Shown: positions 9,056 to 55,776 of the stretch, piece after piece | Layout of the letters: every line of letters begins with the position of its first letter | Numbering within the stretch: the stretch's first letter is position 1 | Assembly (NCBI GenBank): GCA_028709805.1 | Contig: JAQUTL010000012.1 | Coordinates: 1-64,000, forward strand | Reading direction: 5' to 3' | Length of the DNA: 64,000 nucleotides | From: Victivallaceae bacterium | GTDB taxonomy: Bacteria; Verrucomicrobiota; Lentisphaeria; Victivallales; Victivallaceae | Translations under genes and position numbers: made by a program | The notes under the pieces: model-generated | The model's input: only the letters and a program-made list of their open reading frames with translations | Told to the model about the DNA's origin: nothing | Database searches by the model: none

Positions 9056-9062
9056 ATTATAT

Positions 9063-12914: not shown

Positions 12915-12942
12915 AATAGTTCCGGCACGCCCGTTCTTTTGC

Positions 12943-15845: not shown

Positions 15846-15898
15846 CCGCCGCGTCCGCGTAACACGCGGCCACCAAGCGGATTCAGGCAATATGCGAT

Positions 15899-17326
15899 TT
15901 AAACGTTGATCGACTCGCCCTCTTCGGACTCGGCGTTCTTAAGCAGCGGTTCAATGTCGCGCCGGATGAACTCCGCCACCTGTTCCGGAGCGCGGCCGAT
16001 AAACGCCGCAGGATCGACCAGACCGTCGATCTTCCCGTCCAGCATGGCGAACGCCGGATCGCCTTTGATGCGCTCCAGCAGATCGTTGTCACGCCCGAAC
16101 TCCTTGATCTGGCGGGCGGCTTCCATCGAATGGACGCGGATCGCCTCGTGCAGCGCCTGACGGTCGCCGCCGGCCTTGACCGCCTCCATCAGAATATTCT
16201 CGGTGGCCATGAACGGCAGTTCGGCCGCCACATGCCGGGCGATCACGTTCGGCCACACCTGAATGCCGTCCACGATGTTGATGAGCAGCGACAGGATGAC
16301 GTCGGCGGAAAGGAAGCTCTCCGGCAGCGTCAGACGGCGGTTGGCGGAGTCGTCAAGCGTGCGCTCGAACCACTGGCAGGCCTCGGTCTGGGCGGCGTTG
16401 GCCGGCAGGTTCATCAGAAAGCGCGAGAGCGAACAGACCCGTTCGCTGCGCATCGGGTTGCGCTTGTAAGCCATGGCGCTCGAACCGATCTGACTTTTAC
16501 CGAACGGCTCCTCCATTTCGCGCAGATTGGCGAGCAGCCGGATGTCGGTGGCCATCTTATAGGCGCTCTGGGCAAGCCCGGAGAGAACCGTCAGCACAAA
16601 GTAATCGACCTTGCGGGTGTAGGTCTGCCCGGAAACGGCGATGACGTTGGAAAATCCCATCTTTTCCGCCACCATTTTCTCAAGTCTGCAGATGCGCTCA
16701 TGGTCGCCGTCGAACAGCGCCATGAAGCTGGCCTGGGTGCCGGTGGTTCCCTTGACGCTGCGGAACGGCAGACGGCCCAGCTCAAAATCCAGACGTTCAA
16801 GGTCAAGCATGAAGTCCTGAAGATAAAGACTGAACCGCTTGCCCACCGTGGTGAGCTGCGCCACCTGATAATGGGTGAAGCCCAGCGTCGGCAGCGAACG
16901 GTTTTTCATGGCGAAGTCGGCCAGATGGCGCATCAGGGCGACCAGTTTGCCGCGCAGAATGTGCAGACCGTCGCGCATCTGGATAAGCTCGGTGTTGTCG
17001 GTGACAAAGCAGCTGGTGGCGCCGAGGTGGATGATCGGCATCGCCTTGGGGCAGAGCGCGCCGAAGACGTGAATATGGCTCATCACGTCATGCCGGAGTT
17101 CTTTTTCCTTGGCGGCGGCGGCTTCAAAGTCGATATCGTCAAGGTGTCCGCGCATTTCGTCGAGCTGTTCCTCGGTGATGTTCAGACCGAGCGCCTTCTC
17201 GCTCTCGGCCAGAGCCAGCCAGAGGCGGCGCCATGTGGAATGTTTTTTCTGAGGAGACCAGTTGAAGCTCATCTCCTTGCTGGCGTAGCGGTCGGTCAGC
17301 GGATTCTGATAGGTGTTGTAATCCAT
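15899..17326 (-). CDS. purB: Adenylosuccinate lyase
   Basis: 475 residues, the longer (eukaryote-like) class. The fumarase/aspartase-superfamily signature is GSSAMAYKRNPMRSE near residue 280, with Ala where Pro is frequent. HLGATSCFVTDN (about 100) and GFTHYQVAQLTTVGKR (about 150) supply the general acid/base histidines. It makes fumarate with AICAR or AMP in purine synthesis. AAGGAA lies 7 bases before the ATG. It follows the thioesterase gene by 20 bases and is probably in the same transcript. Confidence 0.95.
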   Translation of the reverse strand: MDYNTYQNPLTDRYASKEMSFNWSPQKKHSTWRRLWLALAESEKALGLNITEEQLDEMRGHLDDIDFEAAAAKEKELRHDVMSHIHVFGALCPKAMPIIHLGATSCFVTDNTELIQMRDGLHILRGKLVALMRHLADFAMKNRSLPTLGFTHYQVAQLTTVGKRFSLYLQDFMLDLERLDFELGRLPFRSVKGTTGTQASFMALFDGDHERICRLEKMVAEKMGFSNVIAVSGQTYTRKVDYFVLTVLSGLAQSAYKMATDIRLLANLREMEEPFGKSQIGSSAMAYKRNPMRSERVCSLSRFLMNLPANAAQTEACQWFERTLDDSANRRLTLPESFLSADVILSLLINIVDGIQVWPNVIARHVAAELPFMATENILMEAVKAGGDRQALHEAIRVHSMEAARQIKEFGRDNDLLERIKGDPAFAMLDGKIDGLVDPAAFIGRAPEQVAEFIRRDIEPLLKNAESEEGESINV

Positions 17327-17346
17327 TTGCTATTTCCTTATACATC

Positions 17347-18093
17347 TCAGTTTTGATCGGTAAAAAGCGAGCCGGCGGCCTGAAATTTACTGTTTCCGGC
17401 ATCGTCGCGCCCTTCAATGAAAAACGTTCCGCCGTCATGAACGACGCCGAAAAGTTCAATCGCCTCGTTCAGACGCGAAGCCTGATTGAAATTGATCTGA
17501 AGCGTGCGCACCGCCGGAGTCCGTCCGAGCAGCCCGGCCAGCGCATTATGCACCATTCCGGCGTATTCGCTGTTGTTCATATGGCCGTTCACGTCGATCT
17601 GCGAATCGACGACGCCCGTACGGAAAACCGGACGGCAGTCGTTCGGCGTGACCAGTTTTCCGGGGGCGGGAAAGAATACCGGCAACCCGGCGTTGTCCGG
17701 CAGGGACTCCGCCAGATTGCGGTCGGGGCGCAGCGGACGCAGTGCGGCTGCGTCAAGCAGCAGCCAGCAGCTGGAGCCGGCAAGCACGCGGGCGCCGGAT
17801 TCATCGGCCATATCGAACTGACGGTCGGCAAACAGACGGCTGAACCCGGTCGGATAGGTCTTCAACGCCAGCCGGTCGCCCAGCCGGAGCGGGCGGCTCA
17901 GCTCAATCGCAATGCGCGACAGCACCCACATCTTCCCGGAAGCGGACAAAAATCCGATGCCGCATCCCAGATCCGTGGCGTGATTGGCCGCCGCCTCCTG
18001 AAGATAGTCGAAGACGGAACGGAGTTTGACCCGTCCGGCGCGATCGACTTCGCTGTGGCGCGGCGCGAAATTTTCTGTCCATATGTTCTGCAT
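17347..18093 (-). CDS. Acyl-ACP thioesterase
   Basis: 248 residues with a double hot-dog fold layout. The first half reads SEVDRAGRVKLRSVFDYLQEAA, then WVLSRIAIELSRPLRLGD. The second half holds DVNGHMNNSEYAGMVHNAL, the DxNxHxNN motif of plant and bacterial FatA/FatB-type enzymes. It releases free fatty acids from acyl-ACP. The frame is open far upstream, but ATG 18093 gives the family N-terminus (MQNIWTENF) and stands 7 bases from a TATATT -10 box with no ribosome binding site, so the message should be leaderless. Confidence 0.88.
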   Translation of the reverse strand: MQNIWTENFAPRHSEVDRAGRVKLRSVFDYLQEAAANHATDLGCGIGFLSASGKMWVLSRIAIELSRPLRLGDRLALKTYPTGFSRLFADRQFDMADESGARVLAGSSCWLLLDAAALRPLRPDRNLAESLPDNAGLPVFFPAPGKLVTPNDCRPVFRTGVVDSQIDVNGHMNNSEYAGMVHNALAGLLGRTPAVRTLQINFNQASRLNEAIELFGVVHDGGTFFIEGRDDAGNSKFQAAGSLFTDQN

Positions 18094-18100
18094 ATAGAAT

Positions 18101-18128
18101 AATATAACGTCTCCGGCCCTTTTTTCAA
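18101..18128 (-). promoter_or_regulatory. Sigma70 promoter, leaderless start of the thioesterase gene
   Basis: Minus strand: TTGAAA (18123-18128), 16 bases, TATATT (18101-18106). The ATG begins 7 bases after the -10 box. Confidence 0.65.
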
Positions 18129-18148
18129 CCGTTTCCGGCGCCGCCGGC

Positions 18149-18177
18149 TTGAAAAGCGGCGCCATTCCGGGTAAATT
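18149..18177 (+). promoter_or_regulatory. Sigma70 promoter, leaderless start of the nuclease gene
   Basis: TTGAAA (18149-18154), 17 bases, TAAATT (18172-18177). The ATG at 18185 follows after 7 bases. It is arranged back to back with the thioesterase promoter in a 91-bp intergenic region. Confidence 0.65.
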
Positions 18178-18184
18178 AATCATC

Positions 18185-18859
18185 ATGGTCACCAGAAGAA
18201 AAAAAAACAGACATCCGATTTCCGGCTTCATGCTGAAGTTTTCCGGGTTGGTCGCCGCACCGCTCCTCGGCATGGTCGTTTTCAACCTCGACCGGCTGCC
18301 GCATCTGGCGGAGCAGCGCCATCTGCTGCGCCAGTTCATGCCGGGCTGGGCCACGCCGTTTCTGCCGGGGAACGGCGTACCGTATACGGTTCTGCCGCCC
18401 GGCGCGGAACTTGAGGCGCGGGTGATCGAAGTGTATGACGGCGACACGCTGACCTGCCTCAGTCTGGATGACAAAAACAAGTACAAACTCCGGCTCTACG
18501 GCATCGACGCGCCGGAAGCCGAACAGCCGTTCGGCGACGAGGCCCGGATTGCGCTGCACCGTTTGCTCTACGGCCGGCAGGTCGCGTTCAAGGTGCTCGA
18601 CTCCGATAAATACGGACGCAACGTGGCAAAGGTTTACTGCGACAATCTTTATATCAATCTTGAAATGGTCTCCGAAGGAATGGCGTTCCATTATTACGAA
18701 TTCGCCAAGCGCGACCTTGATCTGCCGCTGGCCGAGGAGCAGGCCCGACGCCGGGAAATCGGCGTATGGAGTCGCCCCAACCCCGAACCGCCGTGGCACT
18801 ACCGCAAGCGCGCCGCCGGAAAAAACAGTGCGGCGACCGCAACAACGCCAAAATCCTGA
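18185..18859 (+). CDS. Thermonuclease-like (SNase) nuclease
   Basis: 224 residues. After a basic N-terminus (MVTRRKKNRH) comes one hydrophobic segment (FMLKFSGLVAAPLLGMVVF), a signal anchor. The SNase domain (about 78-200) holds the Ca2+ ligand VYDGDT, KLRLYGIDAPEAEQPFG (catalytic Arg and Glu) and DKYGRNVAKVY (second catalytic Arg). It should cleave DNA/RNA outside the cytoplasm. An in-frame ATG at 18149 lies within the -35 box, so the ATG at 18185 is chosen. Confidence 0.9.
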   Translation: MVTRRKKNRHPISGFMLKFSGLVAAPLLGMVVFNLDRLPHLAEQRHLLRQFMPGWATPFLPGNGVPYTVLPPGAELEARVIEVYDGDTLTCLSLDDKNKYKLRLYGIDAPEAEQPFGDEARIALHRLLYGRQVAFKVLDSDKYGRNVAKVYCDNLYINLEMVSEGMAFHYYEFAKRDLDLPLAEEQARRREIGVWSRPNPEPPWHYRKRAAGKNSAATATTPKS

Positions 18860-29203: not shown

Positions 29204-29234
29204 GTTGTTTTGCCGCCGAACATGGAACCGCAAC

Positions 29235-29263
29235 TTGATTTTTTCACCGGACGATGCCATATT
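29235..29263 (+). promoter_or_regulatory. Sigma70 promoter of the first GH20-like gene
   Basis: TTGATT (29235-29240), 17 bases, TGC-CATATT (-10 at 29258-29263). It diverges from the glycyl radical enzyme promoter. Confidence 0.6.
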
Positions 29264-29297
29264 ACAGTCGGCAACAAGAAAAAAAGGGAAATATTTT

Positions 29298-31934
29298 ATG
29301 GAAAATATTCTGAAATCAACGGCGGCGGCGCTGCTTGCGCCAATCTCGCTGTTCGCCGCCGTCACCGTGCAGATGAAGCCGATCGACGGCCTGCAGATCA
29401 ACACGCCGTTCTGTGAACTGTCCACCGCCTCACGGCTGATCGCCATCGAGCCGCCGTGGGGTCACTGCTACTTCAACAACGGCAAGGACAAAGTCGATAT
29501 TTCCGGCGACGGCCAAGCCGCCTCCATGCTTCAGGCCGTTCCGAATGAATTTGAACTCACCCGCTACACCGCGACAACCGCGGGCGACACCGCCACGGTC
29601 ACGCTTGAATGCAAACTGGTAAAAGACGTCAAGGCCTTTCTTGAATACACCGCCTTCGCCGTTCCCGGCTATGTTCTGGCCGGCAGCGACTATTCAGCCG
29701 TTTCAATGGACGGCAAAACCGTCTCCGGGCATATCGACACCGCCGAGGCCGGAGAAATATACCGCTACGCTGAAAATTTCAAAACGCTGGAAGTCATTTC
29801 AAAGCTCGGCCGGCTCAATATTGAGGTGGTCTCCGGTCCCGGTCTTAACTTTCTCGACCGCCGCGGCACGAAATTCATGGATCGCGGCTGTTACTGGATC
29901 GGCAACCCGCACACCGCGCTTGAATTCGGAAAAATCCTGAAGTCGGAAATAAAAATATCGTTCACTCCGGCCGGCGACCTCAAGATCATCGAGCCGGCCC
30001 TCCCCTCCGGCAATTTTTCCGCAACCGACGACCCGGCCGTGGTGAAGCCGGCGGCAAAGCCGGAGATACCGCTGGTTCCGGTTCCGCGCTCACTGGAAAA
30101 ACTCGGCGGCACATACACGCCGGGCGGACAGGCCGTCTTCAAGTCGGCGTTCACCGGCCGCGACGGTGAACGACTGCGCGCCGCCGCTTCCAGATTGACG
30201 CCCGACGCAACAGTTGACATCACCATTGATGCCGCGCTTGAACCGGAGGAATACCGGTTGACCGTCCTCGACTCCGGCTTGAATATCGCCGCCGCCGCCG
30301 CGCGCGGCGCGTTCTATGCGCTCCAGACCGCCGCCAGACTCGAAAAGAACGGCGCCTATCCGCAAGTAAAAATCAACGACGGACCGGATCTGCCGTTCCG
30401 CGGCGTCCACCTCTGCCTCGACGCCGGCGACCGCACCTATTACGAACTGGTGGAAAAGGTTTTGGCGCCGTCAAAGATCAACACCGTTGTAGGCGAAGTC
30501 GAATATGTCCAGTGGGACGCCACAAAACCGCTCGGCATCCACCAGGAGGACGGCATGACCAAAGAACAGCTTGCCGAATTCGCCAAACTCTGCGATGACA
30601 ACTTCATCGACTTCATCCCGCTCATGCAGACGCTCGGTCACTGCGGCTGGCTGTTCGCAAACGGCCGGAACTCCGCCATGGCCGAAGATACCGACACCCC
30701 CTACGCCTACAACGTCTCCAATCCGGCCGTCTACCCGCTGATGAGCGCCATTCTCGACGAGCTTTTCGCAATCCGTCCGTTCGACCGTCTCCATATCGGC
30801 CACGACGAAGTCACCATGCGCGGCCGCTTCCCGCACCGCCCGGAAAATGTGGCCAAGGGCATCAAGCAGATCGTTTTCGACGACGTGATGTTCTACTACA
30901 ACTACGCAAAAAAACACAACGCCGAAATCATGATGTGGCATGACATGTTCATGACGCCGGATGAGTCGCTGATCGCCTTCGGCGGTGCGCCCAACAATCT
31001 TGCCGAGCTGCGCCAGGACCTCCCGCGCGACATCGTGTTCTGCGTCTGGCGCTACACCGGCGACAGCTTCCCGGAATTCAGATTGCTGAAAAAAGAGGGC
31101 TTCGAGGTCATCGGCTGTTCGTGGTACGTCAAAAACAATCCGGAACAGCTTGCCGAAACCGCCATAAAGGAGGGCACGTCCGGCGTGCTGGCCACTACAT
31201 GGGCCGGATATTTCGGCAGCAAAACCCTGCTGTCGGAAAATTTCTATCAGGTCGAGCCTTACGTCCGCAGTGCGGCCTGGGGCTGGCGGACGTCGCGCCG
31301 CGACAATTCCGGCATAAACTTCTCCCGCTTGCTCTGCGACCTCCTGACCGTTCCCGGAACCGGAGAACACTCCGGCACAACGATCGATCTTTCCGGAGCC
31401 GCCAATCTGCCGCTCGCCCGGGAAAACGCGCCGTTCCTGCTCTGCGACAACATGGATATCGACCTGCTGCCGGAAGCCGGATATTTCGGAGACACCAGAT
31501 TCATTCTGCCGCGTCTCGCGGGAAAACCGGCGGCGGTGGCGTTCAAGTCACGGCTCAATCCGCTTTTCCCGGAAAACTCCGTTCCGGTGCCGGTCAACCG
31601 CAAGGCATCCTCGGTGCGCGTATTGGCCACCACCGCCGGACTGACGCCGCCGGACAAAACTCCGATGTTTTCCCTGACGCTGAACTACGCCGACGGCTCG
31701 TCCGATACGCTGACCGCCCTGAGCGGCATAGACACCGGAGCGCCGTCCGCCGATTTCAACCTTTATCTGCCGCCGTACAAGGCCTGCACATGGCGCTCGG
31801 ACGGCGCGGAATTCAACATCTGGAGTTCCGAATTCAAAAACCCGGAACCGGACAAGGAGATCGCATCCATCGTATTCTCCGGCTCGCCAGAGGGGTTCGC
31901 CTGCTACATTCTCGGACTTGCGCTGACCGACTGA
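29298..31934 (+). CDS. Secreted GH20-like beta-N-acetylhexosaminidase
   Basis: 878 residues with a signal peptide (MENILKSTAAALLAPISLFA). Residues about 255-340 form the GH20b-type alpha/beta domain (LVPVPRSLEKLGGTYTP); the catalytic barrel follows (FRGVHLCLDAGDRTYYELVEK). The acid/base pair is Asp502-Glu503 in LHIGHDEV, matching GH20 H-x-G-x-D-E. The N-terminal 240 and C-terminal 250 residues are beta-rich and unassigned. It should release N-acetylhexosamines from host or environmental glycans outside the cell. The in-frame ORF extension to 29205 overlaps the promoter. It is a paralogue of the gene at 39733. Confidence 0.85.
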   Translation: MENILKSTAAALLAPISLFAAVTVQMKPIDGLQINTPFCELSTASRLIAIEPPWGHCYFNNGKDKVDISGDGQAASMLQAVPNEFELTRYTATTAGDTATVTLECKLVKDVKAFLEYTAFAVPGYVLAGSDYSAVSMDGKTVSGHIDTAEAGEIYRYAENFKTLEVISKLGRLNIEVVSGPGLNFLDRRGTKFMDRGCYWIGNPHTALEFGKILKSEIKISFTPAGDLKIIEPALPSGNFSATDDPAVVKPAAKPEIPLVPVPRSLEKLGGTYTPGGQAVFKSAFTGRDGERLRAAASRLTPDATVDITIDAALEPEEYRLTVLDSGLNIAAAAARGAFYALQTAARLEKNGAYPQVKINDGPDLPFRGVHLCLDAGDRTYYELVEKVLAPSKINTVVGEVEYVQWDATKPLGIHQEDGMTKEQLAEFAKLCDDNFIDFIPLMQTLGHCGWLFANGRNSAMAEDTDTPYAYNVSNPAVYPLMSAILDELFAIRPFDRLHIGHDEVTMRGRFPHRPENVAKGIKQIVFDDVMFYYNYAKKHNAEIMMWHDMFMTPDESLIAFGGAPNNLAELRQDLPRDIVFCVWRYTGDSFPEFRLLKKEGFEVIGCSWYVKNNPEQLAETAIKEGTSGVLATTWAGYFGSKTLLSENFYQVEPYVRSAAWGWRTSRRDNSGINFSRLLCDLLTVPGTGEHSGTTIDLSGAANLPLARENAPFLLCDNMDIDLLPEAGYFGDTRFILPRLAGKPAAVAFKSRLNPLFPENSVPVPVNRKASSVRVLATTAGLTPPDKTPMFSLTLNYADGSSDTLTALSGIDTGAPSADFNLYLPPYKACTWRSDGAEFNIWSSEFKNPEPDKEIASIVFSGSPEGFACYILGLALTD

Positions 31935-39732: not shown

Positions 39733-42447
39733 TCAGTCGAGCGCCGACAATCCAAGCAGATAATACGGAATCCCGCGGCCGGCCACCTTAATGGCGGCAA
39801 TTTCCTTATCAGGCGCCGGATTATCCCAGGAAAAACACCAGACCCGCACCGGAGTTCCATCGTCCGCCGTCCATTCGGCGCAGCGGTGCTTCGGCAGCAT
39901 CGTGTTGTAGTCAGCGCCGGTCAGCGCCACTTCGCGGTTGAACCGTACCGGAATATCCGCCGTGGAACCGTCGGCATATTCGACCGTCAAATCAGCCACG
40001 GCCGACCCGCCGTACATGGCAACGGGAGGTTTTCGCATCGAATTCAGGAAATAAAGCCGCGAAGCCTTCAACCCGTCGGGAAATGCGATCTTCGCCTCAT
40101 CCGGCAGAACCGGGTTCAACTGGGAATGAACGGAAATCACCGCGGGGAACCCGTCTCTTTCGCCGATTCTGAACCTGACCGCGCAGTCAAGCGGCTTCAG
40201 CAGGGCGGTATCGAAGCCCAGCATCGGCTCCACCAGAAACGGACGGACGGCCGGATCAAGCTTCAGATTGGCCGCGTTGCCCAGATCGATCATGCGGCCT
40301 GGTCCGGCGTTGTCGACCACCTCCGGGAACATCCGCAGATTCAGTTCGTCGCCGGGAGAAAACATATTAGCCGCGTCGGAGGAGTCCCAGGCGCGGGAGC
40401 CGACCGCGATATAGGCGGCCACCTGCTCCGGATTGTCCTGATAAATCCGGTCGAACCCGTTGTAACCGGCCCAGATGGTGCCCATCACGCCGAGACACTT
40501 GTTCCGCAAAACAGCGTCGGTCATATTCCGGACATTGTCCGGCTCCATCCAGTGGCAGCCGACCACATCGAACCCTTCGCCGCGCATATCGACGATATTC
40601 GGCTCGTTGACGTCGGCGCCGTAGTTCCAATGGGCGAACACAATGTCGCGCGGAAGCTCCTTCCTCGCCTCGTCCAATCCGAAAAGACTGATCGTTTTGC
40701 CGTCGGCGGCAAACACATCCGGCGAACGCATGAACATATCCTGCCACATCATCATGCGCAGATTGTTGCGTTTGCAGTAGTCGTAATAGAACATCACGTC
40801 GTCCATAATCAGCTTGCGGGCGCCGATCGCGCGGTTTTCCGGCAGGACGGGATAATCGTATTCGCTGCCGACTTCATCATGCCCGATATGGAGATATTGC
40901 GGATGATTGAAAACCTCTATCACCTCATCCAGCGTCTCGGCCATCAGCGGATGAACCGCCGGATGACGCGGATTGTACACCGTGCATTTGTCCGGATTCT
41001 CGGCCATATCGCGGTTCTGGCCGTTCTTGAACAGCCACTCGCAGTGGCCGAGCGTCTGAAACAAAGGATTGACGTCGATAAAATTATCGTTGGCAATTTT
41101 TATGAGTTTGCGGAGATCGTCCTTGCTCATCGCCCACGGCTGGCGGACGGAGGTCGTGGCATCCCACGCAACATATTCGCACTCAATGAACAGCGTGTTG
41201 ATCCGCAGCGGCGTCAACAGTTTTTCGATAATGTCGCCGTGCACTTTGAGCGAAGAATCGTCAACCATGATCAGAACGGCGCGCATATCGACGTCCGGCC
41301 AGTCCTCGATGCGGACGTTGCGGCGGCGGCGGTCGGCCAGAGTACGGATCGCATAGAATACGCCGCGCGAATTGGAGGCGGAGATATTCACGCCGTCGTG
41401 AGCGGTTTCCAGAACATAGCCGTCCGGACGGATGGTTTTGTCCGCGGTGACGGTCACCGGAAGTTTTTTATTGCGGTCGCCGGTGTTGAGTTTCTCCAAT
41501 GCGGCCGTCAACCGGTCGCCGTCGGGGAAGCCGTCCGGCAGAACCAGATAATAATCGGTTTCCGGCAGCAGAACCTCGTCGCGCACGGTGATTTTTTTGC
41601 AATTCGGCAGCAGTTCAGGCTTGCGCGCCGGCGTAACGGCGAGCCGGTCAACCGCGACCGCCTCCGGCGAACCGAGCGGCGACAGCGGCGGCGGGAAATT
41701 GACGCCGGGCGCAAAATCGAAACGCACCGAGATCACTTCATGTATTTTCTCGCCGGCGGCAAAGTCACCGATACGACCGATCCAGATGCCGGGCGTCGAG
41801 CATTCAACGCCGATGTCAAATCCGAAGCCGCGCCGGTCCACCGCCGAAAGCGGCAACCCGGACAGCACCTCGATCGTATAGGTGCCGAGCTTGGTGTCAA
41901 AAACGATTTTTTTCCAGTTTTCAACCAGCGGGCGGGCGCGATAAACCCAGTCATCCGGGATTTTCCCCTTAACCGTCGAGCCGTCCGCCAGCGTTGCGGT
42001 GAATCCGGCATCGCGCATCAGCGCCTCAGGAATCATCAGAGCGGAATATTCAAACGCGGCCGGAACGTCCGCCAGCGCCTCGCCGTCAAGCGTAACAACG
42101 GCGCAGTCCGGACAAACCTCCACCGAATATTCATCGAGCCGGTATTTTTCCGGCGGCGGCAGCAGTTTCAATGTCAGCTTATAGCCGTCGGCCGTAGCGG
42201 TTTCAACCGTCTCGGTCTTCCACCAGGTGGTCATGAAATATTTGTCGCCCCACGGCGGCTGGGCGGCGATGAATCGGGAGAACAGCGACAGGTCGATCCC
42301 GCGCCGCAGCGCAACACCGCTTGACGACAGATCGGCCGAATAACCGGCCGCCTCAGGTGCTTCGGATTCCCCGGCTCCCGCACATGGAACCGCCGCAACA
42401 ACGCCGAACGTCAGCATTGCGGCTAATTTCAAGACAAGTCGATTCAT
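39733..42447 (-). CDS. Secreted GH20-like protein, second paralogue
   Basis: 904 residues with a signal peptide (MNRLVLKLAAMLTFGVVAAVPCAG). The architecture is the same as for the gene at 29298: a beta-rich N-terminal region, alpha/beta domain, GH20-like barrel with LHIGHDEV near residue 520, then a beta-rich C-terminus. Shared phrases include NDNFIDVNPLFQTLGHCEWLF and FYYDYCKRNN. It is probably an exo-hexosaminidase on extracellular glycans; activity is inferred from the Asp-Glu pair. It follows the PHP-domain gene by 18 bases and uses ribosome binding site AGGAAAAG. Confidence 0.85.
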   Translation of the reverse strand: MNRLVLKLAAMLTFGVVAAVPCAGAGESEAPEAAGYSADLSSSGVALRRGIDLSLFSRFIAAQPPWGDKYFMTTWWKTETVETATADGYKLTLKLLPPPEKYRLDEYSVEVCPDCAVVTLDGEALADVPAAFEYSALMIPEALMRDAGFTATLADGSTVKGKIPDDWVYRARPLVENWKKIVFDTKLGTYTIEVLSGLPLSAVDRRGFGFDIGVECSTPGIWIGRIGDFAAGEKIHEVISVRFDFAPGVNFPPPLSPLGSPEAVAVDRLAVTPARKPELLPNCKKITVRDEVLLPETDYYLVLPDGFPDGDRLTAALEKLNTGDRNKKLPVTVTADKTIRPDGYVLETAHDGVNISASNSRGVFYAIRTLADRRRRNVRIEDWPDVDMRAVLIMVDDSSLKVHGDIIEKLLTPLRINTLFIECEYVAWDATTSVRQPWAMSKDDLRKLIKIANDNFIDVNPLFQTLGHCEWLFKNGQNRDMAENPDKCTVYNPRHPAVHPLMAETLDEVIEVFNHPQYLHIGHDEVGSEYDYPVLPENRAIGARKLIMDDVMFYYDYCKRNNLRMMMWQDMFMRSPDVFAADGKTISLFGLDEARKELPRDIVFAHWNYGADVNEPNIVDMRGEGFDVVGCHWMEPDNVRNMTDAVLRNKCLGVMGTIWAGYNGFDRIYQDNPEQVAAYIAVGSRAWDSSDAANMFSPGDELNLRMFPEVVDNAGPGRMIDLGNAANLKLDPAVRPFLVEPMLGFDTALLKPLDCAVRFRIGERDGFPAVISVHSQLNPVLPDEAKIAFPDGLKASRLYFLNSMRKPPVAMYGGSAVADLTVEYADGSTADIPVRFNREVALTGADYNTMLPKHRCAEWTADDGTPVRVWCFSWDNPAPDKEIAAIKVAGRGIPYYLLGLSALD

Positions 42448-45393: not shown

Positions 45394-45421
45394 TTGCAAA
45401 AACAGCAAAACCATGTATATT
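45394..45421 (+). promoter_or_regulatory. Sigma70 promoter of the MarR operon
   Basis: TTGCAA (45394-45399), 16 bases, TATATT (45416-45421). Confidence 0.65.
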
Positions 45422-45460
45422 ATCTCCAAAATAGAGATGTTTCATTATCGAACCATTTCG
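45422..45460 (+). promoter_or_regulatory. Putative MarR operator dyads
   Basis: ATCTC-N7-GAGAT (45422-45438, perfect 17-bp dyad) covers the predicted transcription start, directly after the -10 box. A second dyad CGAA-N4-TTCG lies at 45449-45460. Autoregulation by the MarR protein is the simplest reading. Confidence 0.5.
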
Positions 45461-45480: not shown

Positions 45481-45969
45481 ATGGACATGACGACATTCAA
45501 GCGGATGTGCCGGCTGCTGGAATTTCAACGGCGCGGCTATTTCGAAAAAGCCTGGCCGCTGCTGTGCCGCAACAGTCTGGCCGCCGATCTTTCGCCACGT
45601 CAGATCAACCATTTAATGATGATCCGGTTCCGCATGCCGTGCAATCTGGCCGAAGTCATGCACCTCACCGGATTGTCCAGTTCGGCGGCGTCGGTTTTTG
45701 TGGACCGGCTGGTAAAATCCGGCGTGGTCCGGCGCGACATCGACGCCAGCGACCGCCGGAACATCCTGATCGGGCCGACGCCGGAAACCCAGCGGCTGTT
45801 CAACGCCATCGACGAACGGCTCAACAATTTCATTATCGAACAGCTCGAATTCTGCACCGACGCGGAACGCGAACTGATCGAAGCCGCCAGCGCCATCCTC
45901 TGCCGCCGCCTCGACGAAATACCGGACTGTGCGGCGGAAATCCAAATCAAATCCGGAGAAAAACTATGA
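45481..45969 (+). CDS. MarR-family transcription regulator
   Basis: 162 residues. The winged-helix core (about 38-105) reads LSPRQINHLMMIRFRMPCNLAEV, then LTGLSSSAASVFVDRLVKSGVVRR and the wing DIDASDRRNILIG, the usual MarR D-x-R-D-R-R layout. Long helices at both ends make the dimer interface (RLNNFIIEQLEF). It probably represses its own operon through the dyads at 45422. The upstream frame starts before the promoter and is rejected; 45481 or 45487 is the start. Its stop overlaps the lipoprotein ATG (ATGA). Confidence 0.9.
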   Translation: MDMTTFKRMCRLLEFQRRGYFEKAWPLLCRNSLAADLSPRQINHLMMIRFRMPCNLAEVMHLTGLSSSAASVFVDRLVKSGVVRRDIDASDRRNILIGPTPETQRLFNAIDERLNNFIIEQLEFCTDAERELIEAASAILCRRLDEIPDCAAEIQIKSGEKL

Positions 45970-46436
45970 AGTCTGGCTCATTTCAGTCCGTTGCGGCGAT
46001 TGTCGCGCTGACCGCGCTGCTGTGCGGCTGCGCCTCGACCGCGCAAAATGACACTCCGTCGGAAAGCGCCGCGGTGCGCGCCGAAAGGATCGCGTCGGAG
46101 TCGCGGGCGCTCGGTGAAAAAATGCTCGACGCCTATATCGCCGGCGACGGCGACAACTTCGCGGCGCTGCTTTCCAACGATGTGCGCCGCAACTTCGGAG
46201 CTGAAGAATTTACCGAAAACCGCGCCGCCATGGAGGAAACCATCGGGTCGGCGCAAAGCTACGAATTCCTTACCGGACTCGACGCTCCGGTATTCCGCAC
46301 CTATCTTTGGAAAGTGCGCTTCATCAGAAAAGCCCAGCTGGACGGGGAAAAGCAGTACAGTCAGGAGACGGTGTTCCGTATAGTCACCGCCGACCTCGAC
46401 GGCAAGCCGTGCCTGATCAGTTTCGGTTTTCTATAA
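45966..46436 (+). CDS. Lipoprotein, DUF3887/NTF2-like
   Basis: 156 residues. The signal peptide ends at lipobox LLCGC (Cys22). The mature part contains EKMLDAYIAGDGDNFAALL, RNFGAEEFTENRAAMEETIG and YLWKVRFIRKAQLDG, the cone-shaped NTF2-like/DUF3887 pattern (a helical start with AGDGDNF, then beta strands). It is probably anchored in the outer or inner membrane. It is coupled to the MarR gene (ATGA) and 33 bases before the first secretin-like gene, so it may be an accessory lipoprotein of those secretins. Confidence 0.75.
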   Translation: MKSGSFQSVAAIVALTALLCGCASTAQNDTPSESAAVRAERIASESRALGEKMLDAYIAGDGDNFAALLSNDVRRNFGAEEFTENRAAMEETIGSAQSYEFLTGLDAPVFRTYLWKVRFIRKAQLDGEKQYSQETVFRIVTADLDGKPCLISFGFL

Positions 46437-46469
46437 AGAAAGAAGTCTCAACAGGGGAACCACAAAAAG

Positions 46470-48014
46470 ATGCAACACCTACGAAGCGCGGTCATGGCCG
46501 CCGTTTTCGCCGTTCTGCCGACCGCCATTTCAGCAAACGCCCAGGACGACACGCAGGTAATTCATTTGCGGCAGGACAACGCCCAAGTGAATTTCGTCAG
46601 CAAACTATACGAACTCAAGCATGTCCGGGCAACCGACATTCTGCCGTTCATCAATTCCGCGGTGCTGCGCTACAATGCGAACTCCACGGTCAGCCGGGTC
46701 AAATACGCGCCGGGCGAAAACGCGCCGGACGCGCTGATGGTGTCAACCGGCGTGGATTTCATGCCCTACGTGGACAGTTTGATCGAGATGATGGACCGGC
46801 CCGGAGTGAAGGACGAAGCCGGGTCGCTGCTGGAAGGCACCGGCGTCTGCCGCGTCGCCTACACGCCGCGCCACCGGGCGGCGCTTGAGTTCGCCTCGCT
46901 GATCGACATGCTGATAAGTTCGTCCGAGGGCAGCGCCTACGTCAACAGCGACACCAACACGATTTTCTGGCGCGACGAGGAGTTCTCCGCAAAAAACACG
47001 CTGAAATGGGTTGAACAGCTGGACCGTCCGCTGCCGCAGGTGGAGGTTCGCGTCAACTATTACGAGGTGCGCGACAGCACGCTGCGCGACATCGGATTCG
47101 ACTATCTGGCCTGGAAAAACGGCCCCGGCGTCAACCTTTTCGGCGTCGGTTACAATGCCGGAGCGCTGACCATCGACGAAGCGTTCCGCAGCGTCGCCAC
47201 CAGCGCGCCGGTGATCGCCGATCTCGCGTCTTCCTGGAGCTACGGCGGCTTTTTCACCGCGCCGCAGTTCGACATGAGTTTCATCCGGGTGCTCCAGCAG
47301 TCCGGCAACGCCAACCTCGCCGCCTACGGTTCGCTGACCATGATCAACACCCCGGTTGCCACCAACGCGGAATACCGCGAGCTGCGCCGAGCCCAGAAAA
47401 CCAATCCGGACACCGCGCCGTACATCTACCGCATGTCCATGTATCCGGAATATCAGAACATCGCTAAAAACGCCGAGGGGCGCAGTTTCATCGGCGCCAG
47501 CTTCGCGGAGGAAAATTCGACCAAGCGCAAAGACCCGCCCGCGCTTGACATCGCCATCAGCAATCCGATCATCTGCTTTCCGGCCGCGACCGGAAATGTG
47601 GACAAACTCGGGTTCATTCCGTCCGACGCCGAATTCTACAACCGCAAAGACGATCTTACCGATTCCGGCGGCGTGATTTTCACCTACCGGTTCGCCTTCA
47701 AGAACGTGGTTGAACGCGGCGCCACCGGCAGCGAACTCAGCAACGAGACCGTGCTTTCCGGCGGCGTCACGCTGGGGTTGGATCATGAAAAAATTCTTTC
47801 AGTCTACGAAAAAGAGAATGAAGTCACCCAGACCATCGGTCTTCCGGTGCTCTGCAAGATACCGGTGATGAAATATCTGTTCAGCACCACCACAACCATC
47901 GAAGAACGCACCTACATTGTCGTTACCGCCGAAGCGTCGCTGGTCCATCCCGCCGGACGCGCCGGAGACAATGGCGCGAATAGCGTTTCCGGCCGCGTCA
48001 CGGACAGAAAGTAA
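46470..48014 (+). CDS. Secretin-like protein 1
   Basis: 514 residues with a signal peptide (about 1-24). An N-terminal segment FVSKLYELKHVRATDILPFI resembles the ring-building N1-type repeats. A second repeat, PLPQVEVRVNYYEV, precedes the beta-domain. The C-terminal VLCKIPVMKYLFSTTTTIEERTYIVV is the secretin core ending (V/L-P-x-L-x-x-I-P-x-x-x-x-L-F). Compared with GspD it lacks several N domains and has long inserts. It could form an outer-membrane pore or an envelope ring. It is part of the MarR operon; the tandem paralogue follows 15 bases later. Confidence 0.7.
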   Translation: MQHLRSAVMAAVFAVLPTAISANAQDDTQVIHLRQDNAQVNFVSKLYELKHVRATDILPFINSAVLRYNANSTVSRVKYAPGENAPDALMVSTGVDFMPYVDSLIEMMDRPGVKDEAGSLLEGTGVCRVAYTPRHRAALEFASLIDMLISSSEGSAYVNSDTNTIFWRDEEFSAKNTLKWVEQLDRPLPQVEVRVNYYEVRDSTLRDIGFDYLAWKNGPGVNLFGVGYNAGALTIDEAFRSVATSAPVIADLASSWSYGGFFTAPQFDMSFIRVLQQSGNANLAAYGSLTMINTPVATNAEYRELRRAQKTNPDTAPYIYRMSMYPEYQNIAKNAEGRSFIGASFAEENSTKRKDPPALDIAISNPIICFPAATGNVDKLGFIPSDAEFYNRKDDLTDSGGVIFTYRFAFKNVVERGATGSELSNETVLSGGVTLGLDHEKILSVYEKENEVTQTIGLPVLCKIPVMKYLFSTTTTIEERTYIVVTAEASLVHPAGRAGDNGANSVSGRVTDRK

Positions 48015-48029
48015 CAGGAGACCACGACA

Positions 48030-49976
48030 ATGAATTTCAATATTCGGATTTTTTCCGCCGCGGCCGCCATTTTTGCAGCCGCCGACCTTGCCGCCGCCGA
48101 CGCCGGCACACTGAATCTCATCCCGTATCAGATTCCCGGCACGCCGCGCAGCTACAACACCAAGACCGGAGAAGGCTACGGCCCGTCGTCGGTTCAGACC
48201 CAGCTCCGGGTCAACGTCAAGGATCAGACCCGCCTGCTCCATTTCATCCGCGACAACACCGACCCGTTCGTCATCACCAAAGCCTACCGGATCACCAAGG
48301 CCAATCCCTATGCGGTGCGGGGCTACATCCTCGGCGCGGTGAACGCCAGACACACCGACAGCAGCCCGGTTCAGGTCACCGCGCTGAAGTTCAACGACGG
48401 CACCGGACTGCTGCTTGCTTCGGCCGAAGATTATCGCTTCAAAGACTCCGCCAACGGAGAGGGTATCGACACGCTGGTGGCGAAACTCGACCGCGCCGAC
48501 CTCACCTTTCCCCGCAAGACCGAAACTTTCATCTATTTCCCGAAAATCAACACCGCCGCCAACATGGCGGAAATGCTCCGACGGGTCGGCAGCAATGAAC
48601 TCGACCCGGAATTCGCGGTCGCGCCCGACCAGATGCTGGTGGACGGCGGAATCAACGCCATTGTGATCGCCGGTCCGGAGTGGTCGTGGAAGCACATGAA
48701 GCGCATGCTCGACGCGTATGACAAACCGATGCCGGAAGTCCGCATCAGCTACCGGGTGCTGGAAATCTACGCGGAAAACGACGACCGGCTCGGCGTCGAC
48801 TTCCAGTCATGGAAAAACAACGACGGCGTTGACCTGTTCTCCGCCGGCGCCCGCATCCGCCGCAACTGGTCCACCTTCTTCACCGGCGGCGTGACGCCCT
48901 CCGGCAACAACAAAGTGGAATACTGGAACTTCAATCCCAAGTGGAACACCCGCTACCTCGACTTCCTCACCAGCATCGGCAAAGCCCGACTGCTGACCAG
49001 CGGAACACTGGTGGCCAAGAACCGTGAACTCTCGGAAGTCCGGGTCAATTCGGGATTTTTTTACGACCGCACCGATGCGTCGTACACTGAAAAAGACGCC
49101 GAATTCTACTACACCTCGCCCAATCCGGACATCATTCCGCGGCAGGCGCTCAACAAGATCATTCCCGAAGACATCATGTATGAAATGATGCCCAACCTCA
49201 ACCGCTCCGGCTACTACTGGCGCATGCTGAACAACCTCGCCGGAGCCACGAAATACGACACCGAAGTCGGGGAAAAAATCAAAGAACAGCTCGCCATCAT
49301 CAACAGCGCCACCGCCACTCAGGCGCAGAAGGCCGCCGCCTACCAGCAGCTTCAGACACTGCTTCAGGAGGAGGGGCTTACCGAGCTGCTGAATTACGCC
49401 TACTACAACCGCAACCCGATAACCGGCAGCACCACCGACAATGACTACGATGTGCTGACCAACAGCACGCCCGGAGTGATCCACGGCAAAATACAGCTGC
49501 CGATGGTGCAGAACGGCTTCCTGTTCGACCTGGCGGTGATGCCGGTGGTCACCGGAGAAAGCGCCACGCTGGAACTGAGCATGGCGTCGATCTCGCTGAT
49601 CGGCTGGAATTCCGACGGATCGACGAGATCGAGCAAGTCGGAAGTGTCGGCGCAGGTGCAGATCGGCTATGAAGGCAAGGATTTCGTGGTCGGCGGACTG
49701 AAGAAGTCGGAATCGGTCCGCAGCGTGTCCGGCCTGCCGTTCGTCAAAGACCTCCCGGTGATCGGGCTGCTGTTCTCAACTGAATCGGAGTCGATCAAGC
49801 AGTCGCAGCTGGTCCTGATCGCGTCGGTCAGCTATTCACCGCCGGACGGCGCGGCCGATCCCGCCGTGGTCGAGCAGCTTGGAAAAATCGTCGAAGGCGT
49901 GAACAAGGGCATCGAAAGCCCGACCGGAAACGTCTTCTTCCAGCAATATCTGCTTGATACCGACAGACCTGAATAA
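48030..49976 (+). CDS. Secretin-like protein 2
   Basis: 648 residues with a signal peptide ending near ADLAAADA. It shares with its neighbour the phrases PMPEVRISYRVLEIYAENDDRLG and DFQSWKNNDGVDLFSAG (compare PLPQVEV and DYLAWKNGPGVNLFGVG in protein 1), and ends with FVVGGLKKSESVRSVSGLP, FVKDLPVIGLLFS and SQLVLIASVSY, a complete secretin signature. The N-terminal 200 residues are not classical. A Tyr/Asn-rich insert with a helical stretch lies at about 390-470. It is the last gene before a strong terminator. It may form hetero- or homo-oligomeric rings with protein 1. Confidence 0.75.
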   Translation: MNFNIRIFSAAAAIFAAADLAAADAGTLNLIPYQIPGTPRSYNTKTGEGYGPSSVQTQLRVNVKDQTRLLHFIRDNTDPFVITKAYRITKANPYAVRGYILGAVNARHTDSSPVQVTALKFNDGTGLLLASAEDYRFKDSANGEGIDTLVAKLDRADLTFPRKTETFIYFPKINTAANMAEMLRRVGSNELDPEFAVAPDQMLVDGGINAIVIAGPEWSWKHMKRMLDAYDKPMPEVRISYRVLEIYAENDDRLGVDFQSWKNNDGVDLFSAGARIRRNWSTFFTGGVTPSGNNKVEYWNFNPKWNTRYLDFLTSIGKARLLTSGTLVAKNRELSEVRVNSGFFYDRTDASYTEKDAEFYYTSPNPDIIPRQALNKIIPEDIMYEMMPNLNRSGYYWRMLNNLAGATKYDTEVGEKIKEQLAIINSATATQAQKAAAYQQLQTLLQEEGLTELLNYAYYNRNPITGSTTDNDYDVLTNSTPGVIHGKIQLPMVQNGFLFDLAVMPVVTGESATLELSMASISLIGWNSDGSTRSSKSEVSAQVQIGYEGKDFVVGGLKKSESVRSVSGLPFVKDLPVIGLLFSTESESIKQSQLVLIASVSYSPPDGAADPAVVEQLGKIVEGVNKGIESPTGNVFFQQYLLDTDRPE

Positions 49977-49988: not shown

Positions 49989-50033
49989 GGCCGCCGGACG
50001 GCTGCGCAACGCAGTTGTCCGGCGGCCTTTTTT
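49989..50033 (+). terminator. Strong terminator after the secretin-like operon
   Basis: GGCCGCCGGAC (49989-49999) pairs perfectly with GTCCGGCGGCC (50017-50027), followed by six T. Confidence 0.95.
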
Positions 50034-50130: not shown

Positions 50131-50183
50131 AACCGGTCGGCGCGTTTGATAAACAGCGACAAACCAATCAACGGAGACCGGTT
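50131..50183 (+). promoter_or_regulatory. Inverted repeat before the type II secretion operon
   Basis: AACCGGTC (50131-50138) and GACCGGTT (50176-50183), perfect 8-bp arms 37 bases apart. The right arm lies just before the ATG at 50188, next to the GGAG sequence. It may be an operator pair or an RNA structure that limits translation. No convincing sigma70 promoter was found; TATACA at 50097 is a weak candidate. Confidence 0.4.
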
Positions 50184-50187
50184 GGGC

Positions 50188-50820
50188 ATGAAAAAGACAA
50201 TTATGATCGCGGCTCTGGCCGCACTGTTCTGCGTTCTGCGCCTTGCCGCACAGGACGGGGGGCAAGATTTTGGCAATTCCATGCCGCCGCCACCGCCGGA
50301 CGGCGGACCGCCGCCGGAAATGACGCCGGACTACGACGGCGCACCCATGACGCCGCCCGACATGCGGAACAGCAACACACCAAGCGCGCCGTCCGCCGAT
50401 TCGTCCGGTATCGAAAGCGCCACGCCGGAACAATGGCAAACCCTGCGCGACTGTCTGAAGAAAAATTATCCGGTCGAATTCGCCGCATTGGAAAAAATAC
50501 AGGCGTCCGCCCCCCGCTCCGCCATGGCCGGTTACCGGAAACTGGCAGTGCTGGCGAAACTGCCGTTCACTTCGCCGCGCGGACTTTACGCCGCCGCGTC
50601 CGGCGGGCGGAACACCGCCGGCCAACGCGACGCCGTCTCCAGATTCAAAGCGCTCGATGCCGCGATCGCCGCCGGATTTCCCGATGAATATGCGAAAATG
50701 ACGGAACTAAGAAAAACCGACCGCGCCGCCGCCGCCGCCATGTTCACCCGACTCGCCGCAAAAGCCGCCCAACCCTTGCCGCCCCGAACCGCCGAACCCG
50801 GCGCGGAGGCACAGCCATGA
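50188..50820 (+). CDS. Secreted proline-rich hypothetical protein
   Basis: 210 residues. A signal peptide (MKKTIMIAALAALFCVLRLAA) is followed by a Pro/Asp/Gly-rich disordered part (about 22-85, MPPPPPDGGPPPEMTP) and a helical Ala-rich domain (about 90-190: TPEQWQTLRDCLKKNYP and SRFKALDAAIAAGFPDEYAKM). It ends in a Pro-rich tail. No family is recognised. It leads the secretion operon and overlaps the PilM-like gene by 4 bases, so a structural or chaperone role in the system is possible. Confidence 0.75.
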   Translation: MKKTIMIAALAALFCVLRLAAQDGGQDFGNSMPPPPPDGGPPPEMTPDYDGAPMTPPDMRNSNTPSAPSADSSGIESATPEQWQTLRDCLKKNYPVEFAALEKIQASAPRSAMAGYRKLAVLAKLPFTSPRGLYAAASGGRNTAGQRDAVSRFKALDAAIAAGFPDEYAKMTELRKTDRAAAAAMFTRLAAKAAQPLPPRTAEPGAEAQP

Positions 50821-53448: not shown

Positions 53449-53490
53449 GACGATTTCATGAAACTTGAATATAAAACAAAGGTATCGCAC

Positions 53491-55776
53491 ATGAAAAAAT
53501 GGCTCATGGCGTCGACCGGAGCGCTTTTGGCCGCGCTCTGTTGCGCCTCCTGCTCACTGGACGGAATGTTCGATGATAAAAAGGACGACGCGCCGGTCAG
53601 AATCGAAGACGCCGACCGCTATACGTTCGTGAAACGCAACCGCAACGAGTCGGAGGTGAAATCCCGCGATGTCGGCGAAGAGGAACTGCCTCCCGCTCAG
53701 GACGCCATCCCGCTGGCGAAAATTGACACGCCGGCGCAGGTGGCGGAGGTTCCCGGAGTCAAAGCCGTAAAGCCGGAACCGTTCTACTCCGAGCTTATCG
53801 CCCTCGACGCCGACGAGGAGCTCCCGGTGCGCATCTCACTCAACTCCGCGCCGCTGATCGACGCACTCCCCGCCTTCGCCGACATCCTCGGCTTCAATTT
53901 CATAGCCGACAGCGAAATAAAAAGCGCCGTCACCGTGAACATCGACTCCGTTCTCACCCGCCGCGAACTCTGGCAGACGCTCGACCAGCTGATCGACCTC
54001 GCCGGATGCAGCGCCAAACTTGACGGCCAGATCGTCAACATCATCCCCGCCGCCAAGCTCGGCGCCAGAAGCACCCTCGCCGCCGGAACATCCGGCGCGC
54101 CGGAACTCGTTTTCCGTCAACTGAAAAACATCACCGCCGCCAGCGCGCAGGAGCTGCTCCAGCCGTTCTGCTCCTCCGGCGCCGTCATCAAGCCGGCCGC
54201 CGCCGCCAACGCGCTGCTGATCGCCGACACTCCGGCCAACGCGGCAAAACTCAATGAAATACTCGACCGCATCGACACCGGGAAACGCGCCGGCTGGCCG
54301 CGCGGCGTCTACCGCTGCGACAACGTGGTTCCCTCCACCGCCGCCGCCGAACTCGCCGCGCTGCTGCCGATCCTCGGCTTCACCGTCGATCTCACCGGCG
54401 GCCAGTCGCAGGAGGCGGGCGCGGTTCAACTCATGGGCGTGGATCGACTCCAAATGCTGGTGGCCACCGCCGCCACCCAGGACGCGCTCGACGAAATCGC
54501 CCGCTGGATTCACATCCTCGACACCGCCGACAACGCCCAGCAGGAACGCGTCTATGTCTACAAAGTCACCAACGGCAAGGCCGAACAGCTGGCGCAGGCG
54601 CTGAGCATCGTCTTCAACGTCTCCTCCGGCACCAGCCTCACCGTGGACTCCGCCGACGCCATCGGCTCCGGATCCAACACCAAAAACCTCGCCAACACCG
54701 GCAGCGCCAACACCACCGACGGAGTGGACAATCTGCCCAACACGCTGGTGGACCGGTCGTCCAGCGTCTTTGAAGTCCCGGTCCGGCTTTTCGCCGACGG
54801 CGTCTACAACCGCCTGGTCATCCGCACCACGCCGCGCTGTTATGCGATGGTCAAGGCGCTGCTCGACCGGCTCGACACCGTGCCGTCACAGGTGCTGATC
54901 CAGATACTGCTGGTGGAAATAACGCTCGACGACTCCACCTTGTTCGGCGTCGAATTTTCCTACGCCGGTTCGGGAGGCGGCGCCGACAGTCTGCTCCAGA
55001 CCAACTACACCGAACTTAAACCGGACGAAGGCGCCGGCGAAGGCTTCAGCTACCTCATCACCAACCCGGACGACCCGAGCCAGAAATTCGGCTACCTCCG
55101 CGCCAAGGCCGGAAAAAGCCGGCTCAAAGTCATATCCAGCCCGCAGGTGCTGGTGTCCAGCAACTCCACCGCCACGGTGCAGATCGGGTCCGACGTGCCG
55201 TATCAGACCGGGTCGATATCCAGCAGCAGCTCGTCCGGCGCCATCACCAACTCATTCCAGTACCGCACCACCGGCATTGTGCTGGAGATCAAACCGCAGG
55301 TGACCAGCAACGACCTCATCTCTTTTGAAATCTCGCAGGAAATCTCCGAGGCGGTGAAAACCACCACCAGCGACATCCAGTCGCCCACCATCACCGTCCG
55401 CAAGATCGAATCGACCATGACCATCGCCAACGGCCGCAGCATGATCCTCGGCGGCCTGATTCAGGAACGCGAAAAGGAGGCGCTGGACACCGTGCCGATA
55501 ATTTCCGAAATTCCTCTGGTCAATTCACTGCTGGGCAAAACCGAAAAGTCGATCGAACGCACCGAAGTGCTGATGATGATCACCGGATATGTCATCAACG
55601 AACGCAGCCCGGTGGAGGATCTGCTCCGCCGCTACAATGAATCGGTGCGCTCGCTGAATTCGTTTGAAAATAAACTTGAGGACGAATACCAGAAGGATGT
55701 CGCCGGCCTCTCCGCCGTCCGTTCCGGCGACACTCCGGTGGTGATCGCCACCGCCCCGGAGACCGCCGCAAAATGA
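53491..55776 (+). CDS. gspD: Type II secretion secretin GspD
   Basis: 761 residues. The lipoprotein signal ends LCCASC. N0 (about 110-185: ISLNSAPLIDALPAFADILGFN), N1 (about 205-270: LVFRQLKNITAASAQELLQPF) and N2/N3 (about 275-420) precede the secretin domain (about 470-740), which carries KSRLKVISSPQVLVSSN, GSDVPYQTGS and GGLIQEREKEALDTVPI. A C-terminal S-domain-like helix follows. It forms the outer membrane gate. ATG 53458 is an alternative start but would put 11 polar residues before the signal peptide. It is followed by gspE with an ATGA overlap. Confidence 0.95.
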   Translation: MKKWLMASTGALLAALCCASCSLDGMFDDKKDDAPVRIEDADRYTFVKRNRNESEVKSRDVGEEELPPAQDAIPLAKIDTPAQVAEVPGVKAVKPEPFYSELIALDADEELPVRISLNSAPLIDALPAFADILGFNFIADSEIKSAVTVNIDSVLTRRELWQTLDQLIDLAGCSAKLDGQIVNIIPAAKLGARSTLAAGTSGAPELVFRQLKNITAASAQELLQPFCSSGAVIKPAAAANALLIADTPANAAKLNEILDRIDTGKRAGWPRGVYRCDNVVPSTAAAELAALLPILGFTVDLTGGQSQEAGAVQLMGVDRLQMLVATAATQDALDEIARWIHILDTADNAQQERVYVYKVTNGKAEQLAQALSIVFNVSSGTSLTVDSADAIGSGSNTKNLANTGSANTTDGVDNLPNTLVDRSSSVFEVPVRLFADGVYNRLVIRTTPRCYAMVKALLDRLDTVPSQVLIQILLVEITLDDSTLFGVEFSYAGSGGGADSLLQTNYTELKPDEGAGEGFSYLITNPDDPSQKFGYLRAKAGKSRLKVISSPQVLVSSNSTATVQIGSDVPYQTGSISSSSSSGAITNSFQYRTTGIVLEIKPQVTSNDLISFEISQEISEAVKTTTSDIQSPTITVRKIESTMTIANGRSMILGGLIQEREKEALDTVPIISEIPLVNSLLGKTEKSIERTEVLMMITGYVINERSPVEDLLRRYNESVRSLNSFENKLEDEYQKDVAGLSAVRSGDTPVVIATAPETAAK

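What the first reader, a model, noticed from the sequence alone, without database searches (positions are those of the whole stretch)
45481..49976. MarR-controlled operon with a lipoprotein and two tandem secretin-like proteins
Two related but unusual secretin-family proteins (514 and 648 aa) sit in tandem, separate from the genuine gspD 3.5 kb downstream and with no ATPase or platform genes of their own. They share motifs such as W-K-N-x-x-G-V-[ND]-L-F. Three secretin-family genes within 10 kb are exceptional. They may form a heteromeric outer-membrane ring, an alternative gate of the same secretion system, or a new envelope structure switched by an environmental signal.
Basis: partly seen in the sequence, partly recalled or inferred. 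Interest (0 to 1): 0.7.

Follow-up and report, generated by a model that had tools for sequence, protein, structure and literature searches.

The report
Stand-alone paired secretin operon in Victivallales
Bacteria of the order Victivallales carry an apparently undescribed cassette of two always-adjacent sister outer-membrane "secretin" genes, often with a small lipoprotein and its own MarR switch, that is not part of the neighbouring protein-secretion system and may build a two-protein outer-membrane channel.

Summary
An operon MarR–lipoprotein–P1–P2 (45481–49976) encodes two secretin-fold proteins. P2 exceeds the Pfam Secretin cut-off; P1 falls below it, but all 55 P1 family members scanned match the family, and both AlphaFold models hit secretins. 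The operon starts at a promoter overlapping a palindrome conserved ahead of most relatives' MarR-containing operons, and ends in a strong terminator 12 bp after P2, before the gsp operon.

It is not a T2SS part. P1 and P2 are sister clades (100/100 each). P1 was found only in this order among the genomes sampled; genomes carry up to at least five pairs. P2 follows P1 in 117 of 117 loci with room for it, and their trees match (r=0.97). Pairs occur in ≥97%-complete genomes without a T2SS GspD, orthologous GspD genes lie on other contigs, and no N0 docking domain was detected.

Best reading: a self-contained two-subunit outer-membrane secretin channel, with the lipoprotein as assembly factor and MarR as ligand-responsive repressor. 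Identity, pairing and operator are well supported; the heteromeric pore, the lipoprotein's role and the cargo are inferred. New variant of a known kind.

The parts
45394..45421 (+). sigma-70-like promoter, TTGCAA-16-TATATT (an 18-nt spacing to TATTAT overlaps it)
   Evidence: Consensus scan. TATATTAT directly before the palindrome recurs upstream of many relatives' modules.
45422..45438 (+). probable MarR operator, palindrome ATCTCCAAAATAGAGAT overlapping the -10; full conserved site TATATTATCTCCAAAATAGAGAT is 45416-45438
   Evidence: EM motif TATATTATCTTTcAaTgAAAGAT found ahead of the first gene in 39 of 49 upstream regions of MarR-containing modules (about five are the same locus fetched twice); log-likelihood 297.6 vs 57-61 in shuffled upstreams. 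ATCT-N9-AGAT in 8/49 vs 0.5 in shuffles and 0-2 at other spacings. The -10 plus palindrome pattern occurs once in the genome.
45481..45969 (+). MarR-family transcriptional regulator, 162 aa from ATG 45481 (ATG 45487 also possible)
   Evidence: PF01047 31.2 bits, cut-off 24.6; homologue in the same cluster in 54 loci; alignment A6.
45966..46436 (+). small lipoprotein (LP), 156 aa, lipobox LCGC; weak NTF2-like signal
   Evidence: A5: Cys22 invariant in 32 homologues; weak matches to DUF3887, YvbJ NTF2, DUF4440 and designed NTF2 folds; next to P1-P2 in 69 loci.
46470..48014 (+). P1, 514-aa secretin-fold protein: signal peptide, two N-type ring domains (about 42-111 and 126-184), secretin domain about 190-492; no N0 detected; GGL motif lost
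48030..49976 (+). P2, 648-aa secretin-family protein: signal peptide, two N-type domains (about 81-153 and 165-230), secretin domain about 232-603, C-terminal helix and conserved tail; GGL motif kept; no N0 detected
   Evidence: PF00263 47.7 bits.
49065..49484 (+). about 140-residue insertion of variable length in P2's secretin domain, approximately where T2SS secretins have the central-gate loop
   Evidence: A1: hypervariable region, nearly absent in the ~540-aa P2s; flanked by G342 (invariant) and G496 (>=90%) in A3; mostly low-confidence in the model.
49989..50027 (+). intrinsic terminator ending the operon (18-pair stem, then TTTTTT)

Best explanation
The operon encodes a self-contained outer-membrane secretin channel of Victivallales made from two sister subunits, P1 and P2, that arose by an ancient tandem duplication and have since been inherited and multiplied as a pair. 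Proposed working: both proteins cross the inner membrane by Sec. The co-encoded lipoprotein (or, in many relatives, a lipid anchor on P2 itself) takes them to the outer membrane and helps them assemble, as pilotins do. P1 and P2 then form a gated ring, most likely a mixed or stacked P1/P2 ring in which P2 supplies the usual gate hinge and an enlarged gate loop and P1 a diverged element. Lacking N0, the channel does not dock to a T2SS/T4P platform in the known way; it acts alone or with an unidentified partner. MarR represses the operon through a palindrome at the promoter and releases it when a ligand or redox signal appears. Shown by sequence: gene content, homology, strict pairing, co-divergence, independence from T2SS, the conserved operator-like site, the terminator. 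Inferred: outer-membrane location, hetero-oligomer, the lipoprotein's role, MarR binding and derepression by a signal, cargo.
For: Fold. Pairing: P2 directly follows P1 in 117/117 loci with room, gaps -4 to 46 bp but for two. P1 and P2 are sister clades, 100/100 each, joined 98.6/100, against the GspD, T4P-type and ABC-linked secretins of related genomes. P1 and P2 trees match, r=0.97, maximum permuted 0.14, 98 pairs. Asymmetric divergence: GG of GGL kept in 21/22 P2, absent in 22/22 P1. Lipoprotein in 69 loci, MarR in 54; the operator-like site stays at the head of the operon whether MarR is first or last. T2SS independence: G018, G027, G039 (97-98% complete) have P1-P2 but no GspD match at E<=1e-60; G001, G022, G040, G054 have GspD without P1. 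No N0 found in P1, P2 or homologues, while the window GspD has it weakly.
Against: No biochemical data and no multimer prediction. Strict linkage alone gives matching trees, so co-divergence does not prove contact. About 40% of the loci lack a recognised lipoprotein and about half lack MarR, so neither is essential to the core pair. Every relative has T4P/T2SS-type ATPases, so help from the T4P-like machine cannot be excluded. The lipoprotein's weak NTF2-like signal matches no pilotin fold known to me.
Confidence: 0.5

Rival explanations
1. P1 and P2 each form their own homomeric outer-membrane pore with different tasks and are simply co-expressed.
For: Known secretin rings are homomers (general knowledge; e.g. 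pIV, PMC8563730). P2 keeps the hallmark GGL motif and could work alone. P1 and P2 differ strongly in gate region and length.
Against: No P1 without P2 in 117 loci, a fixed order, tiny gaps and co-divergence are easier to explain if both make one structure. P1 alone has lost GGL, suggesting dependence.
Confidence: 0.25
2. The pair is an alternative or accessory outer-membrane ring for the T4P-like machine of these genomes, acting in trans.
For: All 61 genomes have T4P/T2SS-type ATPases. The T4P-like operon of this genome itself carries two tandem secretins. Secretins elsewhere serve such machines.
Against: No N0 docking domain detected; no T4P secretin or other conserved partner gene next to the pair in fetched loci; scores far below PilQ and Amuc_1098 cut-offs.
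Confidence: 0.15
3. P1 and P2 are secretin-derived proteins that no longer form an open channel but build a static envelope ring or scaffold.
For: P1 lost the GG pair; no N0 in either; P2's gate region holds a long insertion; no conserved transport genes nearby.
Against: The secretin core is conserved in all members and P2 keeps GGL and glycines near the gate ends.
Confidence: 0.07
4. The pair is part of the neighbouring type II secretion system (alternative gate).
For: It lies less than 1 kb upstream of the gsp operon on the same strand. G001, of the same genus, lacks both P1 and a close orthologue of the window GspD.
Against: Terminator between them; no GspD near the pair in other loci; GspD orthologues on other contigs in G009, G013, G015; pairs in genomes without GspD and the reverse.
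Confidence: 0.03

Closest known systems
Type II secretion secretin GspD (PulD, XcpQ, EpsD)
   Same: Secretin domain, N-type ring domains, gate region; top Foldseek matches; best profile match for P2.
   Different: No N0 detected, no gsp gene linkage, TIGR02517 scores 29.6 and 48.2 bits against a cut-off of 351; two sister subunits instead of one.
pIV of filamentous phage f1 (7ofh)
   Same: Best solved-structure profile match of P1 (E 5.6e-14); few N domains before the secretin domain; not part of a pilus or T2SS.
   Different: pIV has an N0 that contacts pI/pXI (PMC8563730) and is a homomer; P2 has no relative in phage records and none was confirmed in the viral-contig scan.
PilQ and the Amuc_1098 family (T4P secretins; Amuc_1098 in PVC bacteria)
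   Same: Same superfamily; Amuc_1098 is an outer-membrane secretin of a PVC bacterium (PMC4960237); best NCBIfam E-value for P1 and P2 is to PilQ.
   Different: Scores far below cut-offs (38 and 51 vs 284; 13 and 26 vs 750); no T4P secretin-operon neighbours.
Pilotin lipoproteins (PulS, AspS, MxiM, TadD)
   Same: Small lipoprotein encoded with a secretin.
   Different: No match to a pilotin family in Pfam; weak NTF2-like signals only.

Membership tests
Secretin superfamily | C-terminal secretin domain (PF00263) | tested here: met
   P2 47.7 bits, above the 27.5 cut-off. P1 21.2, below, but 55/55 family members match at E<=0.01 and the fold search gives secretins.
Secretin superfamily | N-type ring-building domain(s) before the secretin domain | tested here: met
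   Secretin_N in 54/55 P1 and 29/57 P2 family members; two alpha/beta N domains in each model.
Secretin superfamily | GGL motif after the gate region | tested here: inconclusive
   P2 met in 21/22; P1 not met in 22/22.
Secretin superfamily | 12-15-mer heat/SDS-resistant ring in the outer membrane | not testable with these tools
   Needs biochemistry; no multimer prediction available.
GspD (type II secretion secretin) | N0 domain (PF21305) | tested here: not met
   No hit in P1 or P2 at E<=1, nor in homologues at E<=0.01; the window GspD hits weakly at 8.9e-5.
GspD (type II secretion secretin) | Linked to, or co-occurring with, gsp genes | tested here: not met
   the window itself is the only adjacency seen.
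PilQ / Amuc_1098 T4P secretin | Curated family score and T4P operon linkage | tested here: not met
   TIGR02515 38.1 and 51.0 vs 284; NF042912 13.3 and 25.9 vs 750; no conserved neighbours of the pair other than lipoprotein and MarR.
MarR regulators | MarR winged-helix domain | tested here: met
   PF01047 31.2 vs 24.6.
MarR regulators | Palindromic operator at the promoter of its own operon | tested here: met
   Conserved site at the operon head; binding itself not tested.
Pilotin | Lipobox and genetic linkage to a secretin | tested here: met
Pilotin | Binds the secretin and targets it to the outer membrane | not testable with these tools
   Needs co-expression experiments.

The most novel reading that the evidence does not exclude
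A natural two-component secretin: one outer-membrane ring built from two obligate sister subunits, independent of T2SS, T3SS, T4P and phage machines, multiplied into several differently regulated copies per genome across one bacterial order.
Probability: 0.33. Interest if true: 0.8.

Novelty: new variant of a known kind. Interest (0 to 1): 0.58.

Why it matters
Secretins are thought of as homomeric pores serving known machines. An order-wide family of obligate sister-secretin pairs without their own ATPase, platform or docking domain would show that secretins have been recruited into a different, self-contained envelope channel. It also raises testable questions about ring symmetry, gating and assembly. 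Victivallis vadensis DSM 14823, a type strain held in a culture collection, carries such a pair (L158).

Tried and rejected
Single-sequence scan of genome contigs with P2 found nothing; the P1 family alignment then gave 273 relatives. T2SS membership: rejected by gene order, co-occurrence and lack of N0. Phage origin: no P2 relatives in phage records and none confirmed in viral contigs. Link to orphan prepilins: prepilin-like genes are scattered, 25 in 120 loci, with no fixed position. Conserved neighbours beyond the lipoprotein and MarR: none found. A link between P2's C-terminal tail and the lipoprotein was considered and dropped: some lipoprotein-bearing pairs lack the tail. Gate pivot glycines: the column-wise alignment is ambiguous, so only an approximate position is claimed. 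Literature: searches of the held library found no description of this pair; papers outside it were not searched.

Full report
What is there. The window carries MarR (45481–45969), a small lipoprotein (45966–46436), P1 (46470–48014) and P2 (48030–49976), all on the + strand with overlaps or gaps of at most 33 bp. An 18-pair terminator follows P2 at 49989–50027. Beyond it starts a separate gsp (T2SS) operon with gspD at 53458–55776. The genome is a 2.55-Mb, 93%-complete assembly; named relatives are mostly Lentisphaeria/Victivallales MAGs, and Victivallis vadensis.

Are they secretins? P2 passes the Pfam Secretin cut-off; P1 does not, but every family member scanned matches the family at E≤0.01. 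Profile searches of solved structures return secretins only: P1 best pIV, 5.6e-14; P2 best GspD, 7.3e-18. AlphaFold models of moderate confidence give secretins as all significant Foldseek hits shown; TM-scores are low, as expected for uncertain domain placement. Each protein has two N-type domains, a secretin domain and no detected N0. P1 has lost the GG of the GGL motif; P2 keeps it. P2 has an insertion of about 140 residues, variable among relatives, approximately where T2SS secretins carry the central-gate loop (gate description in PMC10550240).

A paired module. P2 was found in 59 and P1 in 51 of 61 genomes (for P2 the weakest hits may be other secretins). A phylum-wide sample finds P1 only within this order: 56 of 241 genomes. 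Genomes carry up to at least five pairs. Of 119 P1 genes in fetched loci, P2 follows directly in all 117 with room, within 46 bp but for two. Some loci were fetched twice from two collections, so these are loci, not independent genomes; 98 non-identical pairs were used for trees. P1 and P2 trees agree (r=0.97). With the GspD, T4P-type and ABC-linked secretins of these genomes as outgroup, P1 and P2 are each monophyletic (100/100) and sisters (98.6/100). So one tandem duplication in an ancestor was probably followed by copying of the pair as a unit. The outgroup is limited to secretins of this order.

Accessory genes. Arrangements are LP–P1–P2–MarR (46 loci), P1–P2 alone (41), LP–P1–P2 (16), MarR–P1–P2 (6), P1–P2–LP (3), and MarR–LP–P1–P2 only in the window. 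The lipoprotein has an invariant Cys and weak NTF2-like signals. Upstream of the first gene, whichever it is, 39 of 49 upstream regions of MarR-containing modules (about five fetched twice) share TATATTATCTTTcAaTgAAAGAT, a -10 element plus palindrome (log-likelihood 297.6 against about 58 in shuffles). The window copy at 45416–45438 is the only exact match to its pattern in the genome. The MarR proteins share an invariant Cys in PCNL (Cys54), which could sense redox state or metal; that is a guess.

Not T2SS. Among fetched loci GspD adjoins the pair only in the window. In G009, G013 and G015 the module and the GspD orthologue are on different contigs. G018, G027 and G039 (97–98% complete) have P1–P2 but no GspD match at E≤1e-60; G001, G022, G040 and G054 have GspD without P1. 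All genomes keep T4P/T2SS-type ATPases, so help from the T4P-like machine is not excluded.

Mechanism. The most economical reading is a self-contained outer-membrane channel made by P1 and P2 together, helped to the outer membrane by the lipoprotein (or by P2's own lipid anchor in many relatives: L074–L077, L086, L090 and L091 have P2 lipoboxes), and switched by MarR. Strict linkage, fixed order, asymmetric loss of gate motifs and co-divergence point to a shared structure; none proves it. Mixed multimers of PulD variants form in vitro (PMC4604470), so mixed secretin rings are physically possible.

Novelty. The held library yielded no description of this pair. The proteins belong to the secretin superfamily but reach the cut-off of no curated secretin subfamily tested. 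I rate it a new variant of a known kind, rising in interest if the heteromeric ring is confirmed.

Noticed in passing
L072 (G000:C27:95000-110000), 4106-8958 minus strand: A 460-aa secretin gene is followed directly by an HlyD/MacA-like adaptor, an ABC ATPase and a MacB-type permease (by reading the sequences): a secretin where TolC would be expected in a MacAB-type exporter.
   Followed up: partly
L071 (G000:C46:55000-74000), 8555-18445 minus strand: The T4P-like (Amuc_1098-type) operon carries two tandem secretin genes (940 and 852 aa) after PilM/PilN-like genes, a second, independent case of tandem secretins in this genome.
   Followed up: partly
L073 (G000:C14:285000-302000), 3653-14402: A second T2SS operon; its GspD (818 aa) and the window GspD both start with a lipobox-like sequence, so they look like liposecretins.
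   Followed up: no
G001 (same genus as the window genome): Lacks P1 and a close orthologue of the window GspD but keeps the other GspD type: a possible joint loss, one case only.
   Followed up: partly
window 45481-45969 (MarR, Cys54 in PCNL): A cysteine in the MarR DNA-binding region is invariant in 25 homologues; possible redox or metal sensor.
   Followed up: no
window 29205-31934 (+) and 39733-42447 (-); L072 11289-14087: Three paralogous ~900-aa secreted proteins that look like glycosidases, perhaps hexosaminidase-like; not searched.
   Followed up: no
window 50146-50820: Proline-rich secreted protein of about 210-224 aa, first gene after the terminator and head of the gsp operon; no Pfam match.
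   Followed up: no
L155 9426-11186: The only P2 found broken, into three pieces.
   Followed up: no
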